DNA from: Chloroflexota bacterium
GTDB lineage: Bacteria > Chloroflexota > Anaerolineae > Promineifilales > Promineifilaceae
Direction: 5' to 3'
Assembly (NCBI GenBank): GCA_018004935.1
Contig: JAGNBF010000045.1
Span: 19,838 to 57,382, forward strand
DNA length: 37,545 nucleotides
Part shown: positions 9,721 through 33,135 of the stretch, piece by piece
How the letters are laid out: every line of letters begins with the position of its first letter
How positions within the stretch are numbered: the first letter of the stretch is position 1
Program-made: the position numbers and the translations under genes
The notes under the pieces: generated by a model
Seen by the model: the letters and a program-made list of their open reading frames with translations, nothing else
What the model was told of the DNA's origin: nothing
Database searches by the model: none

Positions 9721-9824
9721 GAAATAACGTGGGTGGCGCGGTCAGAAGACCGGTCACAGCAAATGTTCAAGTTATTTAATCGCCAATCCTAAGCGTTCAC
9801 TCGCCACTCGCAACTTATTTTCGC

Positions 9825-10348
9825 AGGAGTTCCCCATGTGCCTTTGGTACACCAAGAGGGATGAAAATCTGTAGGACGATTTGGTAAATCGTCCGGGCGA
9901 TTTGCCAAATCGCCCTACATTTTCGCAGGAGTTCCCCATGTGCCTTTGGTACACCAAGAGGGATGAAAATCTGTAGGACGATTTGGTAAATCGTCCGGGC
10001 GATTTGCCAAATCGCCCCACATTTTCGCAGGAGTTCCCCATGGGCCTGCGGCACACCAAGAGGGATGAAAATCTGTAGGACGATTTGGTAAATCGTCCGG
10101 GCGATTTGCCAAATCGCCCTACATTTTCGCAGGAGTTCCCCATGTGCCTTTGGTACACCAAGAGGGATGAAAATCTGTAGGACGATTTGGTAAATCGTCC
10201 GGGCGATTTGCCAAATCGCCCCACATTTTCGCAGGAGTTCCCCATGGGCCTGCGGCACACCAAGAGGGATGAAAATCTGTAGGACGATTTGGTAAATCGT
10301 CCACTGGGCGATTTACAAAATCGCCCTACATTTTCGCAGGAGCGCAAT
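9825..10348 (+). repeat. Tandem array of five 102 bp units, each with a ribosome-binding site and a 12-codon ORF
   Basis: Each unit reads: AGGAG, six bases, ATG, a 12-codon ORF ending in TAG, hairpin GACGATTTGGTAAATCGTC, hairpin GGGCGATTTGCCAAATCGCCC (or CCAC-ending variant), then CATTTTCGC into the next AGGAG. ATGs are at 9836, 9938, 10040, 10142 and 10244, exactly 102 bases apart. The following gene's own AGGAG (10338-10342) and ATG (10349) have the same geometry, so it looks like a sixth unit. The last hairpin pair is a little altered. Two peptide types alternate: MCLWYTKRDENL in units 1, 2 and 4, and MGLRHTKRDENL in units 3 and 5. A 102 bp period is a multiple of three, which explains the long open frames on the opposite strand. 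Confidence 0.85.
9836..9874 (+). CDS. Repeat-borne mini-ORF, unit 1 (MCLWYTKRDENL)
   Basis: Twelve codons plus TAG with AGGAG six bases upstream. Identical ORFs occur at 9938-9976 and 10142-10180; the variant MGLRHTKRDENL occurs at 10040-10078 and 10244-10282. The stop codon lies at the foot of the first hairpin. They could be leader peptides for the large gene at 10349 or by-products of amplifying its leader. Translation is not demonstrated. Confidence 0.35.
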   Translation: MCLWYTKRDENL

Positions 10349-12430
10349 ATGGCCAACCCTTTGCAATTTGATGATCGCTTCAAAAATTTGGCCAACTACT
10401 TGCAATGGACTGATGCCAAAATCAATGATTTGGTGCTGGCTGTTGATGTCCTCAATATAAATAGTATCCAGTCCCACGTTGAAGCTCAACTTCGTGCACT
10501 AGGTTTCCCCAAAACCTTACACCAATGGATTTCGGCTAATGTCCTGCACATTCGGCAATCCCTGGATAATCTTCACAAGGCGTTATGTGCCCTTACCCTT
10601 TCAGAACTATCTTTGACGGTGGATAGGTGGCACAAACGATTATGGGAAAGTCAACAGTTAGAGTGGCGTTCTCCCTTGTTGTGTTGTGGTCCTGGGGCTG
10701 TTGAAGATTCGGTGTTATCCGCCGATGCGTTTATAAAGCGTCTGGCCCTTTTTATGGTGGTGAAACAGCATCGGGAGAAAATTGTGTCGGTGTTGGTATC
10801 AGGCGAACTCCAACCGACTGATGAGGAACACCCAGATGTGGGTTTATTGCTGAGGATGATGCGAGATAACCCGACTTATTTTGCCGCTAGCCGGGTAGCC
10901 GCAAGCCAGGATGTTATGATCCTGGCCGCTACGCTATGGTCGGAACTACATCATTCTATCCCTGTCGAACCTGGTCAGCAGATTATCGCTAGTGCCGTGC
11001 TGGCCTTACCCCAACCTGTAGAGACTGATGATGTGGAATCGGTGGTGCGCCATGAAGGGGATGTCCTGACGGCCTTGCACGCGGCCGCGATCCAACCTGG
11101 TCGTGGGCTAAAACCGTTTTTGGGCAACCCAGAACTCAGCCAGACCTTTATCGGCCTGTTTGACGATTTTGTGTCTGCCGCGTCCACAGAAATTGGGGGG
11201 GCACAGGCTTTTATGGCCTCCGGTAATAGCCATCTAGGTATCAAGGCCGATATAGCCTGGCCTTATCATCCCCGCCAATTGCTCAAATATGGAACCCTCA
11301 CACCCTGGAACCGGATCAACCGGGTAGTGATGGATGAATCATACCAACTCCATGTATTGCCCTTTTCCTCGCGGGAGGCGGGGCGGCCGCATAAACGAAG
11401 CTTTATTGTGGCCCTATCCGCTGGTCACGTTATCGCTGGTGTTGAAGCCGCCGGTAATGATCGTCTTATTTTTCGGATGCGCCGGTATAGTAGTGAAAAG
11501 GAACCGCTCCACGAATTTCACCTGATTTGTCACCAGGGACAAACCATTCACAAACCGGGGACCTGGTATCCTAACGAATGGCCTTCCCTTCCTTTGCTTG
11601 GTCAGTTGAAAGTGGGCCAGGGAAAGGCGATTTTTCAGGCGGCCAATGCGACCTTTTTGCAAAAAGTGGCCGGGCAATATCCGCGCCTTGTCTGGAGTGG
11701 CCTGCAAGCCATTGAAGACCCTGGTTATACCACTCAGGAGCGTGCCCTTCTGGTTAAGGAAATTACCTACCAGATGGAGGTTCTTTGCCAGGCCGGGGTT
11801 AAAATTTTTATTGAACTAAGTGGTGTGCCTCGTGATGTTACCCTCATCCGCGATCTGATTGCCGGGCGAGCTACCTTTGTCAGCATCAACCAGACGGAAT
11901 TGGATCATTGGACCAACTCATGGGAAGTGAAAGAGGCGCTCCACCTACAGGCCTGGCCTGTGCCAACAGGGCGGCCGGAGTCGTTGTTGGAACGGCATCA
12001 GCGGGGCGTTTATCTGGCCCAATTTCTAAATACAGACGTGTTTGTTCATGGGAATGAGTGTAGTTTTTATATTACTCGTGCCGCCGATAAAAAACGGCTC
12101 CAGTGTATCGTGTTGGCGATTTTGGCGGCCAAGTTGGCTGTGATTGCCCAACTCTTAGAACGAACCAATACCCGCCAGATTCAACGGCCAGATCTGGCCG
12201 ATAAAGGGTTTATGGCGTTATTGCAGTTTGCTTATGATTTTGCCCAATCACGGGACATGCCCGAAGCGTTGTTTGAAATAATGAATAATGGTTATTACGC
12301 GGCCGCAACTGAGAACGAATACTCGTTTGTTATTGTCCCTGTTCCCTGGCCCGAGGAAGTGCATGATGTCAATCCCACCGGCTCCGGGGACACAATTGCT
12401 GGCGTCGCGGCCGCGTTGTTACCTGATTGA
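10349..12430 (+). CDS. ADP-dependent glucokinase/phosphofructokinase-like protein with long N-terminal extension
   Basis: Protein of 693 residues. The start is ATG 10349, with AGGAG six bases upstream, not the in-frame start at 10289 inside the repeat array. From about residue 255 it resembles the ADP-dependent sugar kinase family (ribokinase fold): EIGGAQAFMAS (281-291) fits the substrate-lid/GG motif, IELSGVPRDVTLIRDLI and FVSINQTEL fit the conserved core, and NPTGSGDT (675-682) is the anion-hole motif with Asp681 as catalytic base. Residues 1-250 form a helical extension unlike typical family members (about 450 residues). Family enzymes phosphorylate glucose or fructose-6-phosphate using ADP. 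Whether this one is active is unknown. It sits directly before a CHAT gene (92 bp). Confidence 0.65.
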   Translation: MANPLQFDDRFKNLANYLQWTDAKINDLVLAVDVLNINSIQSHVEAQLRALGFPKTLHQWISANVLHIRQSLDNLHKALCALTLSELSLTVDRWHKRLWESQQLEWRSPLLCCGPGAVEDSVLSADAFIKRLALFMVVKQHREKIVSVLVSGELQPTDEEHPDVGLLLRMMRDNPTYFAASRVAASQDVMILAATLWSELHHSIPVEPGQQIIASAVLALPQPVETDDVESVVRHEGDVLTALHAAAIQPGRGLKPFLGNPELSQTFIGLFDDFVSAASTEIGGAQAFMASGNSHLGIKADIAWPYHPRQLLKYGTLTPWNRINRVVMDESYQLHVLPFSSREAGRPHKRSFIVALSAGHVIAGVEAAGNDRLIFRMRRYSSEKEPLHEFHLICHQGQTIHKPGTWYPNEWPSLPLLGQLKVGQGKAIFQAANATFLQKVAGQYPRLVWSGLQAIEDPGYTTQERALLVKEITYQMEVLCQAGVKIFIELSGVPRDVTLIRDLIAGRATFVSINQTELDHWTNSWEVKEALHLQAWPVPTGRPESLLERHQRGVYLAQFLNTDVFVHGNECSFYITRAADKKRLQCIVLAILAAKLAVIAQLLERTNTRQIQRPDLADKGFMALLQFAYDFAQSRDMPEALFEIMNNGYYAAATENEYSFVIVPVPWPEEVHDVNPTGSGDTIAGVAAALLPD

Positions 12431-12522
12431 TAACCAGAAGAGCGATTTACCCACCACTCATTACCACGGCAATTTCGTTTACCCTCGGGACGACTCAGGT
12501 TAAAGACCGCAAGGAAAAAATT

Positions 12523-13701
12523 ATGCCAACAACAATAAACATGGGGTCTATGGGACGCCATTTAAGCCGTATAGGCCCTCAACTTATTAACGTCTTGAAA
12601 GGAAATGTTGCATTGTCGGGTGATCTCCTGGCCCTGGGGAAAAAGTTATATCCTCTCTTTTTTGGGGTCGCTGGTTTGTCGCCGGACGATCCCTTTCCGA
12701 TCCAGCTTGTTTTTGATCAGAATAGAGATCGGAATATTTTTCCTTATCCTTATGAACTCATTGCCGATGACAGTGGCGCTCAGATATGTCGCCAACAAGG
12801 GGCGATGATCCGGGTGTTGGATAAGGAGATTGCTCCTCGCCTTTTAACCTTGCCCCTCCGCGTTTTGCTCATCATCGCCAGCCCCCAGACGGGGGGATAT
12901 GACCACCTTAATACCGAAATGCACCAGCAAGCCATTCGCCATGAGTGGGCCTATTTTGATAAATTGGTCTATTTTGACACCATCACCGGGCCAAATACGT
13001 TAGAGAAGTTACGCCAGAAACTAACGACAAGTAACCCATACCATATTGTGCATATCGTGGCGCATGGCAGTGATAATTTTAATGGCGGGGGCGGGGCGAT
13101 TATTTTTGCTGATGAAAATGGGGGAGCGAATCCTCTTGACGGGAACCATTTGTATGCCGAACTGACGACTCTCACCGGACAGACTCCTCATTTGGTTATT
13201 CTCAATAGCTGTCTGACCGGTGGAGGGCAGAAGGTTGAGGCCAATCAGTTTGCCGTGGTGACCTGGCAGTTATTGGTGTCGGGTATTCCGGCGGTGGTAG
13301 CGATGCAGGCAAAAGTGTTAGAGGAAAACGCGGCCGCGGCCGCGGCCCGCTTTTATCATCTACTCCTGGCTGGTCATTCCCTAGATAAAGCCGTATTGGG
13401 CATGCGAACCTCCCTGGTATACCAATGGTACGCCCCCATTCTCGCCCTTCAGAAAGGATACGATTGCCATTTCTTCACCCCTGAAACACGAACCTACTTG
13501 CATACCCTGCATGAATTCAACGAACAAGTCAAAAGCCTATACACAGAATGGCAACAAAATAAGACACCGCAACAGTATCAGGCGTTGCGTGAATGCCTCC
13601 GCCGGGACAACCCTGACATCCTGCCGCTTATCCATAACCATGATGAATTAGCCGAAGCTATTTTGTACCAGATGGCGGAGAAATTGAATGTATTAATGTA
13701 A
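12523..13701 (+). CDS. CHAT-domain (caspase-like) protein
   Basis: Protein of 392 residues from ATG 12523, which has AAGGAA at 12511-12516; a longer in-frame start at 12427 overlaps the end of the previous gene and lacks a site. It is a CHAT-type clan CD cysteine peptidase. PYELIADDSG fits the conserved N-terminal WELLYD-like motif, HIVHIVAHGS carries catalytic His181, and HLVILNSCLTG carries catalytic Cys230. SGIPAVVAMQAKV is the usual strand after the Cys. The C-terminal 60 residues form a small helical domain that could be an adaptor. CHAT proteins are often effectors in bacterial conflict or cell-death systems. The cleaved partner is not evident; candidates are the adjacent kinase-like protein or the coiled-coil protein downstream. 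Confidence 0.85.
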   Translation: MPTTINMGSMGRHLSRIGPQLINVLKGNVALSGDLLALGKKLYPLFFGVAGLSPDDPFPIQLVFDQNRDRNIFPYPYELIADDSGAQICRQQGAMIRVLDKEIAPRLLTLPLRVLLIIASPQTGGYDHLNTEMHQQAIRHEWAYFDKLVYFDTITGPNTLEKLRQKLTTSNPYHIVHIVAHGSDNFNGGGGAIIFADENGGANPLDGNHLYAELTTLTGQTPHLVILNSCLTGGGQKVEANQFAVVTWQLLVSGIPAVVAMQAKVLEENAAAAAARFYHLLLAGHSLDKAVLGMRTSLVYQWYAPILALQKGYDCHFFTPETRTYLHTLHEFNEQVKSLYTEWQQNKTPQQYQALRECLRRDNPDILPLIHNHDELAEAILYQMAEKLNVLM

Positions 13702-31666: not shown

Positions 31667-32941
31667 CTACGCGGGCACATACCACCCGACTGTCCGGTTT
31701 TCCGGGCGCAGGTAGGTAGCACGCACCCGCTCCAGATCTGCCAGCGTAACCTGGCTCAATTTTTCCAGGGCGGTTTCAAACCAACCATAATCACCGATGA
31801 CTGCTTCCGCCATGCCCAACATTTGCGCCTGACCACTGACACTTTCTCCGGCCATAATGAAGGAGGCACGCGCCCGTTTCATTGCTTTATCTAGTTCTGC
31901 CTGGGTAATTGGCTCAGTAGCCAGGCGTTCAATTTCGGCATCCAGAGCGGCTTCAACCTCAGCCAGAGTGCGGCCAGGGCGAGCCACGGCCCCAATGGTG
32001 TACAGGTAGGGGTCAATGGTAGGGCCTAACCCCCCAAACGCGGCCGCGGCCACTCCCGTCAACACCAGCGCCTTATACAAGCGGGAACTTTTGTTCCCCC
32101 CACCCCCACCAAACAATCCCAGGCTACTGCCACCAGAAAACCCGGCATTAAGCAAGGCCATCGGGTAAAAATCAGGGTGATTGGCCGCAGGTGCCCGGTA
32201 GGCCACCGCAATGTAGTGGGTATCACCTGGCCCTTTCACCGTAACACGCCGCTCCCCCCGCTGAGGTGGCTCATGGCGCGTCATGGGTGGCAACGGATCA
32301 CTGGCCGCCAGATGACCAAAATATTCCTGGATTTTAGCCAGCATCTCCGCCTGTTGGAAATCACCCGTCACCACCACCGTGGCATTGTTAGGGGCATACG
32401 CCTGCCGGTAATGGTGGTACAAATCATCCCGCGTCATCACTTCCAGGTCCACTTCATCCCCAATAATTTCGTGATGATAGGGATGAACCCGAAACGCGGC
32501 CGCTTGCAACTCCTCACTTAACACAAAGAACGGCTGATTCTCATACATATGCCGCTCCGAAATAATCACCGTGCGCTCTGATTCCACTTCCTCAGGATCA
32601 AACAAAGCCCCCGTCATCCGGTCAGACTCAATTTGCAAGGCCAATTCCGCCCGATCAGAAGGGAGTGTTTCAAAATAAGCCGTAAAATCAATCCAGGTGA
32701 AGGCATTAAACCGCCCCCCCTCGCGGGAAACCACTCGATCCAACACACCCGCCGGAAAACGGTTTGCTCCCTTGAACATCATATGTTCGACCCAATGGGA
32801 GATACCTGTTAAACCAGGTCTTTCATTACGGCTACCCACCCGGTACCAAACCCAAAAACTGGTTACCGGGGCATGGCGCATCTCTTTTAAGACCACCGTC
32901 AGACCATTCTCAAGCTGTGTTTTATAAACGGGTAAGGACAT
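31667..32941 (-). CDS. M16-family zinc peptidase
   Basis: Peptidase of 424 residues, the single M16 unit size. The ATG at 32941 has AGGAG seven bases upstream on this strand. The inverted zinc motif HWVEH at 49-53 gives His49, catalytic Glu52 and His53, and Glu129 (ISERH), 76 residues on, is the expected third ligand. The rest shows the two-lobed M16 layout, with PNNATVVVTGDF closing the first half. There is no signal peptide, so it is probably cytoplasmic. A glycine-rich stretch (LGLFGGGGGNKSSRLY) fits the flexible part seen before the second lobe in this family. Members degrade short peptides or process precursors. A long leader with a family D hairpin lies upstream. Confidence 0.9.
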   Translation of the reverse strand: MSLPVYKTQLENGLTVVLKEMRHAPVTSFWVWYRVGSRNERPGLTGISHWVEHMMFKGANRFPAGVLDRVVSREGGRFNAFTWIDFTAYFETLPSDRAELALQIESDRMTGALFDPEEVESERTVIISERHMYENQPFFVLSEELQAAAFRVHPYHHEIIGDEVDLEVMTRDDLYHHYRQAYAPNNATVVVTGDFQQAEMLAKIQEYFGHLAASDPLPPMTRHEPPQRGERRVTVKGPGDTHYIAVAYRAPAANHPDFYPMALLNAGFSGGSSLGLFGGGGGNKSSRLYKALVLTGVAAAAFGGLGPTIDPYLYTIGAVARPGRTLAEVEAALDAEIERLATEPITQAELDKAMKRARASFIMAGESVSGQAQMLGMAEAVIGDYGWFETALEKLSQVTLADLERVRATYLRPENRTVGWYVPA

Positions 32942-32952
32942 GGGTGAACTCC

Positions 32953-33018
32953 TGCAAAAATGTAGGGCGATTTTGTAAATCGCTATGTGGACGATTTACA
33001 AAATCGTCCTACAAATTT
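32953..33018. repeat. Family D hairpins in the M16 leader
   Basis: GTAGGGCGATTTTGTAAATC and GACGATTTACAAAATCGTC form adjacent stems between the predicted promoter and the ribosome-binding site of the M16 gene. They are the same stem types as in the 9825-10348 array. Confidence 0.6.
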
Positions 33019-33135
33019 TCATTCCTCTGGATGCGCCAAAGAGCCAGAGGGAACTTCTTCAAAACCACTTGTGAGATTTGTCATACCTGATAGTCAAATA
33101 GCGGCAGGCAAAGGCAGTTTATGCTTCTATTGTTC

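What the first reader, a model, noticed from the sequence alone, without database searches (positions are those of the whole stretch)
9825..10348. Five tandem copies of a ribosome-binding-site plus mini-ORF plus double-hairpin unit, upstream of a large gene
Units of exactly 102 bp each carry AGGAG, a six-base gap, ATG and a 12-codon ORF stopping at the foot of a hairpin. The downstream gene starts with the same AGGAG-to-ATG spacing, so the array looks like repeated duplication of its translation start. Two peptide variants alternate (MCLWYTKRDENL and MGLRHTKRDENL) with an unchanged TKRDENL end. It could be a multi-leader control region, a source of small peptides, or a phase-variable leader whose copy number tunes expression.
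Basis: partly seen in the sequence, partly recalled or inferred. Interest (0 to 1): 0.78.

Follow-up and report, generated by a model that had tools for sequence, protein, structure and literature searches.

The report
Mobile repeat inserted at ribosome-binding sites
The five-unit array is one of hundreds of copies of a short mobile-looking DNA repeat that sits at the ribosome-binding sites of unrelated genes and is flanked by two copies of that site, so each gene keeps a working translation signal; this landing strategy was not found described in the papers searched.

Summary
The array is real (9825-10342; four units of 102 bp, one of 105 bp) and is not private to this gene. The unit belongs to a dispersed repeat family: 518 near-exact hits of its left end in this 8.0-Mb Anaerolineae genome, against 2 for the reversed pattern. 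Every copy has the frame AGGAG|TTCCCCATG-hairpin-CACC..GAAAAT-[palindromic module]-ATTTTCNN|AGGAG. In an 820-kb sample, 22 of 35 arrays end exactly where the terminal AGGAG is the Shine-Dalgarno (SD) sequence of an unrelated gene (20% for other intergenic AGGAG sites; p=5e-7). The same frame with other modules occurs in at least five further genomes, all Anaerolineae/Chloroflexi. Two alignable empty sites in a sister species show one AGGAG and no element where the relative has element plus two AGGAGs. Best reading: a non-autonomous mobile repeat that inserts at SD sequences and leaves AGGAG on both sides; arrays then grow by tandem (here dimer) duplication. The mini-ORF peptide shows no sign of selection (pN/pS 0.74-0.86; ATG no more conserved than its neighbours and part of a covarying stem). 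The mobilising enzyme was not found. Regulatory effects are possible but untested.

The parts
9791..9816 (+). right half of another palindromic module (AAGCGTTCACTCGCCACTCGCAACTT) without its own left end, abutting the array
   Evidence: sequence; same CACTCGC..AACTTATTTTC module occurs inside other copies; listed as an orphan right end
9817..9829 (+). right-end sequence ATTTTCGC + AGGAG of that preceding module; its AGGAG is the left flank of unit 1
   Evidence: sequence; orphan right end
9825..9926 (+). unit 1 (102 bp)
9836..9874 (+). mini-ORF of unit 1, MCLWYTKRDENL + TAG (repeated at +102, +204, +306, +408)
   Evidence: sequence; no sign of peptide selection
9837..9851 (+). left-end hairpin stem/loop of unit 1 (TGTGCC-TTT-GGTACA); TG of the ATG forms its base
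   Evidence: covariation over 36 distinct cores
9871..9918 (+). module A of unit 1: GTAG-tagged double palindrome GTAGGACGATTTGGTAAATCGTCC / GGGCGATTTGCCAAATCGCCCTAC
   Evidence: sequence; fold; 118 of 148 such hairpins in 820 kb lie near a core
9927..10028 (+). unit 2 (102 bp)
10029..10130 (+). unit 3 (102 bp, MGLRHTKRDENL variant)
10131..10232 (+). unit 4 (102 bp, identical to unit 2)
10233..10337 (+). unit 5 (105 bp; identical to unit 3 over its first 70 bp, then a 3-bp longer hairpin junction)
10338..10342 (+). terminal AGGAG: right flanking copy and Shine-Dalgarno of the downstream gene (6 nt before ATG 10349)
10349..12430 (+). downstream gene, 693 aa, no Pfam match, followed by a CHAT-domain gene; passive recipient in this reading
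32949..33059 (-). second, diverged copy of the same element in the window, directly before the 424-aa ORF 32941..31667 (peptidase-like by its residues, not run against Pfam)

Best explanation
The array is a stack of copies of a short (~82-115 bp) non-autonomous mobile repeat whose insertion site is the Shine-Dalgarno sequence AGGAG. The element proper starts TTCCCCATG and ends ATTTTCNN. It carries a small covarying hairpin at its left end and a swappable palindromic module held between GAAAAT and ATTTTC (here a GTAG-tagged double REP-like palindrome). Insertion leaves AGGAG on both sides: the left copy now lies 6 nt before the element's own ATG, and the right copy stays at a normal distance from the host gene's start codon, so the gene remains translatable. 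SHOWN: dispersal, flanking AGGAG repeats, SD-position enrichment, empty alleles in a sister species, hairpin covariation. INFERRED: transposition as the process, duplication (rather than reuse) of the target, near-neutrality to the host gene, growth of arrays by tandem duplication plus re-insertion, and action of an unidentified enzyme in trans on the hairpins. The mini-ORF is most likely a by-product of the SD-like target and the hairpin.
For: 518 hits of AGGAGTTCCCCATG (<=1 mismatch) in the own genome vs 2 for the reversed control; at least 168 unit matches in about 38 arrays, 97-98% identical between some unlinked contigs. 22/35 arrays end 3-9 nt before the ATG of an ORF >=60 aa, vs 50/250 other intergenic AGGAG and 89/1128 of all (p=5e-7, 2.5e-15). 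Downstream genes are unrelated: pyruvate-dehydrogenase-like, FeoA-like, GTPase, enoyl-CoA-hydratase-like, SDRs (names by eye). The G008 genome has near-identical 82-bp copies at unrelated sites; flank information is 2.0 bits over AGGAG on both sides and about 0-0.5 bit just beyond it on the right. Empty sites G017 vs G032: L105/L193 share terminator and promoter (left-flank score 74 vs 18+-7 shuffled) and L204/L210 share TATAAT; G032 has one AGGAG and no element. Stem covariation: 83% paired, 21 double-change cells vs 11 shuffled, 0/500 shuffles as high in covariation score.
Against: No transposase found: the own genome has one Y1_Tnp match, a fusion-type protein, and G008 only weak ones; no Y1 locus fetched is flanked by the element's ends. 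About a third of arrays do not abut a recognised gene start. The flanking 5-mer may be part of a longer preferred target: left flanks carry a weak ATTTNCNN before AGGAG, so some insertions went into pre-existing palindrome+AGGAG units. No empty site was available for this window's array. The background ORF calls are crude (greedy, longest-start).
Confidence: 0.77

Rival explanations
1. Domesticated multi-leader control region: the units are kept because they regulate the downstream genes (translation of stacked mini-ORFs, hairpins near the SD, copy number tuning expression).
For: Good SD-ATG spacing, short ORF with early stop, strong hairpins just before the gene's SD; leader peptides have been proposed to raise downstream translation by reinitiation (PMC4833913).
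Against: Hundreds of copies before functionally unrelated genes, modules swapped freely, mini-ORF frame and length not kept between genera, ATG not better conserved than neighbours and CTG in 11 of 155 copies. In module A the mini-ORF stop lies about 70 nt upstream of the next start, far beyond the 10-16 bp peak in that paper.
Confidence: 0.1
2. The enzyme recognises AGGAG anywhere; SD positions are over-represented only because insertions elsewhere are purged, so the SD link is a by-product of selection. (A narrower version of the best explanation, not exclusive with mobility.)
For: A third of arrays are not at gene starts; intergenic AGGAG sites are already 20% SD.
Against: 63% vs 20% among intergenic sites (p=5e-7), though non-SD insertions could also be lost faster by deletion.
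Confidence: 0.35
3. Portable ribosome-binding site: the element inserts upstream of genes without specificity and its own terminal AGGAG becomes the gene's SD.
For: The right-end ATTTTCNN-AGGAG is nearly invariant.
Against: Sister-species alleles without the element already have AGGAG at the corresponding place (L193, L208, L210), and left flanks nearly always carry AGGAG too.
Confidence: 0.06
4. Source of small peptides (TKRDENL-type).
For: Conserved TKRDEN letters in this genome.
Against: pN/pS 0.74-0.86; frameshifts and 8- to 45-codon readings; relatives read MGAAHHDK, MSGAHHDE etc..
Confidence: 0.03

Closest known systems
REP/BIME/REPIN palindromes (GTAG-tagged families, PMC3733652; RAYT, PMC2817692)
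   Same: Module A is a GTAG-tagged palindrome pair in inverted orientation, high copy, intergenic; GTAG REPs are reported in Chloroflexi.
   Different: Here the palindrome is cargo inside a larger conserved frame with AGGAG flanks; other copies carry unrelated palindromes; no typical RAYT found in the own genome.
BOX, RUP and SPRITE repeats of pneumococcus (PMC3049150)
   Same: Composite modular repeats with variable number of internal modules, hairpin-forming, intergenic, non-autonomous.
   Different: BOX and RUP have terminal inverted repeats and target-site duplications; no SD-position rule is described in the passages read.
MITEs
   Same: Short, non-coding, dispersed, flanked by short direct repeats.
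   Different: No terminal inverted repeats between TTCCCCATG.. and ..ATTTTCNN, and no partner transposase with shared ends found.
IS200/IS605-type non-autonomous elements (general knowledge; abstract of PMC6006769)
   Same: No terminal inverted repeats, subterminal hairpins, sequence-specific target.
   Different: No Y1 transposase with matching ends; AGGAG present at both ends.
Leader peptides / uORFs
   Same: SD, ATG, short ORF, stop before a gene.
   Different: No conserved peptide across genera, present before unrelated genes.

Membership tests
MITE | terminal inverted repeats | tested here: not met
   ends TTCCCCATG and ATTTTCNN are not inverted repeats of each other; the GAAAAT/ATTTTC repeat is internal on the left side
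MITE | target-site duplication | tested here: inconclusive
   AGGAG on both sides in nearly all copies and single in the empty alleles; duplication vs reuse of an element-borne AGGAG not separable
MITE | related autonomous element in the genome | tested here: inconclusive
   none within the 820 kb read; the rest of the genome was searched only by pattern and the Y1 family
REPIN/BIME (REP-RAYT) | GTAG-tagged palindrome pair in inverted orientation | tested here: met
   module A only (sequence); modules B and others lack it
REPIN/BIME (REP-RAYT) | RAYT (Y1) transposase in the genome | tested here: not met
   one PF01797 match, a 388-aa fusion-type protein with only a C-terminal match; assembly is 96.6% complete, so absence is not proven
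IS200/IS605-like non-autonomous element | subterminal hairpins | tested here: met
   left hairpin with covariation, right palindromic module
IS200/IS605-like non-autonomous element | Y1 transposase acting on the same ends | tested here: not met
   the 20 fetched Y1 loci of 12 family genomes carry no such ends
Leader peptide / attenuator | selected peptide or codon content | tested here: not met
   pN/pS 0.74-0.86; frames not conserved
Leader peptide / attenuator | translated and affecting the downstream gene | not testable with these tools
   needs ribosome profiling or reporters
Known structured RNA | Rfam match above gathering score | tested here: not met
   none; only microRNA-family matches far below their gathering scores

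The most novel reading that the evidence does not exclude
A class of bacterial mobile elements whose target is the Shine-Dalgarno sequence itself: by leaving the SD on both sides, it has a genome-wide 'safe harbour' at gene starts, accumulates in hundreds of copies and stacks into arrays, moved by an enzyme not of the usual DDE or RAYT kind.
Probability: 0.45. Interest if true: 0.8.

Novelty: new variant of a known kind. Interest (0 to 1): 0.63.

Why it matters
Targeting the ribosome-binding site and restoring it on insertion would be a new way for a parasite repeat to avoid harming its host, comparable in logic to elements that target tRNA genes or attTn7. It would also mean that 5' leaders of many genes in these bacteria are built of mobile DNA, which affects how start sites, small ORFs and leader regulation are annotated: each copy mimics a perfect SD-ATG-short-ORF signal.

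Tried and rejected
Local duplication of the gene's own start: rejected, the unit is genome-wide. Peptide coding: disfavoured on pN/pS and frame. RAYT as mobiliser in this genome: not found. Autonomous long copies: none among left and right ends in 820 kb. RNAalifold on the core alone gave no useful helix; a hand-specified stem was tested instead. Homologues of the downstream gene by genome-contig scan: none. Rfam: none. Paper searches for SD-targeting repeats gave nothing matching; most subscription papers are not in that library.

Full report
CHECK. The array exists as described, with small corrections. TRF places it at 9817-10342, period 102, 5.1 copies. Units 1-4 are 102 bp, unit 5 is 105 bp, and units 2+3 and 4+5 are a duplicated dimer. 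This explains the two 'alternating' peptides without any special mechanism.

NOT A LOCAL DUPLICATION. A BLAST search of the own genome (8.0 Mb, 229 contigs) with one unit gave 168 matches in about 38 arrays on some 33 contigs. The left end AGGAGTTCCCCATG occurs 518 times with at most one mismatch, against 2 for the reversed pattern. Reading 39 of these places shows a constant frame: AGGAG | TTCCCCATG + 11 variable, often palindromic nt + CACCAAGAGGGATGAAAAT + module + ATTTTCG(T/C) | AGGAG. Modules are of several unrelated kinds: the GTAG-tagged double palindrome (115 of 155 cores), an AACGCCAC...GTGGCT palindrome (about 32), and GCGAGT-type repeats. Different modules are mixed within one array. 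Cores are more alike within arrays (3.9 differences) than between arrays (6.2), so arrays also grow by local duplication.

POSITION. In an 820-kb sample of seven contigs and the window, 88 left ends form 35 arrays. The sampled contigs were chosen because they held at least one array, so densities are not genome averages. In 22 arrays the terminal AGGAG lies 3-9 nt before the ATG of an ORF of at least 60 aa. The share is 50/250 for other intergenic AGGAG sites and 89/1128 for all others (Fisher p 5e-7 and 2.5e-15). Two more arrays with a variant right end also abut an ATG. The recipient genes are unrelated; by eye they include a pyruvate-dehydrogenase-like subunit, a FeoA-like protein, a GTPase, an enoyl-CoA-hydratase-like protein and SDRs (these names were not run against Pfam). 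Many first copies of arrays have unrelated left flanks apart from AGGAG; others are preceded by a further module.

OTHER GENOMES. Five relatives in the same family have 11-27 hits of the left end, against 0-7 in the rest. Not every hit in these relatives is an element; some are plain SD-ATG gene starts. A scan of one genome for each of 84,980 species with a stricter pattern hit 29 places, all in about six Anaerolineae/Chloroflexi MAGs. In the genome G008 (SLGK01, MAG CSSed162cmB_92) there are 18 left ends, most of them nearly identical 82-bp elements at unrelated places. Information content of the flanks is 2.0 bits over AGGAG on both sides and near zero to the right of it; on the left there is a weak ATTTNCNN. 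Modules differ from genome to genome while the frame stays.

EMPTY SITES. G017 and G032 share a genus. At L105/L193 (a gene with a permease-like sequence) the upstream terminator and promoter region align (left-flank score 74 against 18+-7 for shuffles). G032 has one AGGAG and no element; G017 has an 85-bp element between two AGGAGs. L204/L210 (an SCP2-like gene) shows the same, with a conserved TATAAT. L208 also has AGGAG and no element, but its upstream flank does not align. L207 has a palindrome + ATTTTCG-AGGAG without a left end. L192 and L209 lack the element and have other SDs. The two species are only about 70-77% identical in coding DNA, so these are orthologous empty alleles and not strain-level empty sites.

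MINI-ORF. Over 59 distinct in-frame copies pN/pS is 0.74 (distinct variants) or 0.86 (pairwise). The A of the ATG is slightly less conserved than the Cs before it. 11 of 155 copies read CTG instead of ATG. The stem TGnGCC/GGCnCA, whose base is the TG of the ATG, is paired in 83% of cells against 75% in shuffles, with 21 double changes against 11, and falls to 19-47% when slid. Conservation of the ATG can therefore be explained at the nucleic-acid level. In relatives the frame ends after 8 codons, here after 12 or at variable places. Translation of these ORFs is neither shown nor excluded.

MECHANISM. Shown: dispersal, flanking AGGAG, SD enrichment, empty alleles, hairpins. Inferred: transposition by an enzyme acting in trans, perhaps on single-stranded hairpins, since the ends have no inverted repeats. 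The obvious candidate class (Y1/RAYT) was looked for and is not present in typical form in the own genome or G008, and no fetched Y1 locus carries the ends. Whether the enzyme prefers SD sites or only AGGAG, with purging elsewhere, is open.

KNOWN KINDS. Module A is a REP-type palindrome pair of the GTAG sort (PMC3733652 lists Chloroflexi). The composite nature resembles pneumococcal BOX elements (PMC3049150). Neither is described, in what could be read, as sitting at the SD and leaving it on both sides. I therefore call it a new variant of a known kind (short non-autonomous interspersed repeat) with an unusual target rule. The paper library lacks most subscription journals, so prior description cannot be excluded.

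LIMITS. The window's own array has no comparable relative, because its downstream gene is nearly an orphan. Arrays contain assembly gaps, so copy numbers are approximate. Gene calls in the position test were simple ORFs.

Noticed in passing
window 1-37545 and 820 kb of the own genome: GCGGCCGC occurs 1187 times in 820 kb (17 expected from base composition), 95% inside ORF calls; loci of several relatives instead show ACGGCCGT often. It looks like a HIP1-type highly iterated palindrome with lineage-specific letters; cyanobacterial HIP1 GCGATCGC is absent (0 hits).
   Followed up: partly
window 32949-33059 (-): A second, diverged copy of the element directly before the 424-aa ORF on the minus strand.
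   Followed up: yes
L207; C190:40361 (+); window 9791-9829: Palindromic modules ending ATTTTCG..AGGAG without a left end also sit at gene starts or before arrays; they may be truncated copies or an independent palindrome+SD unit that serves as a preferred target.
   Followed up: partly
C74 minus strand 79318 (sample coordinate): Module-less core GATGAAAATTTGTAGGAG-AAACT-ATG directly before a gene that looks like pyrF: possibly the minimal ancestral form.
   Followed up: no
L062 646-1812: A 388-aa protein whose C-terminal part matches Y1_Tnp (PF01797) fused to a longer N-terminal part; similar ~380-450 aa open frames with Y1 matches occur in relatives: possibly a domesticated Y1 domain.
   Followed up: no
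L130, L132, L134 (G026): Left ends with an extra hairpin TTCGGCTGAGCTCACGCCGAAG inserted after CACCG: nested palindromes inside the element.
   Followed up: no
window 10349-13701: An orphan 693-aa gene without Pfam match overlaps by 4 nt a CHAT-domain gene.
   Followed up: no
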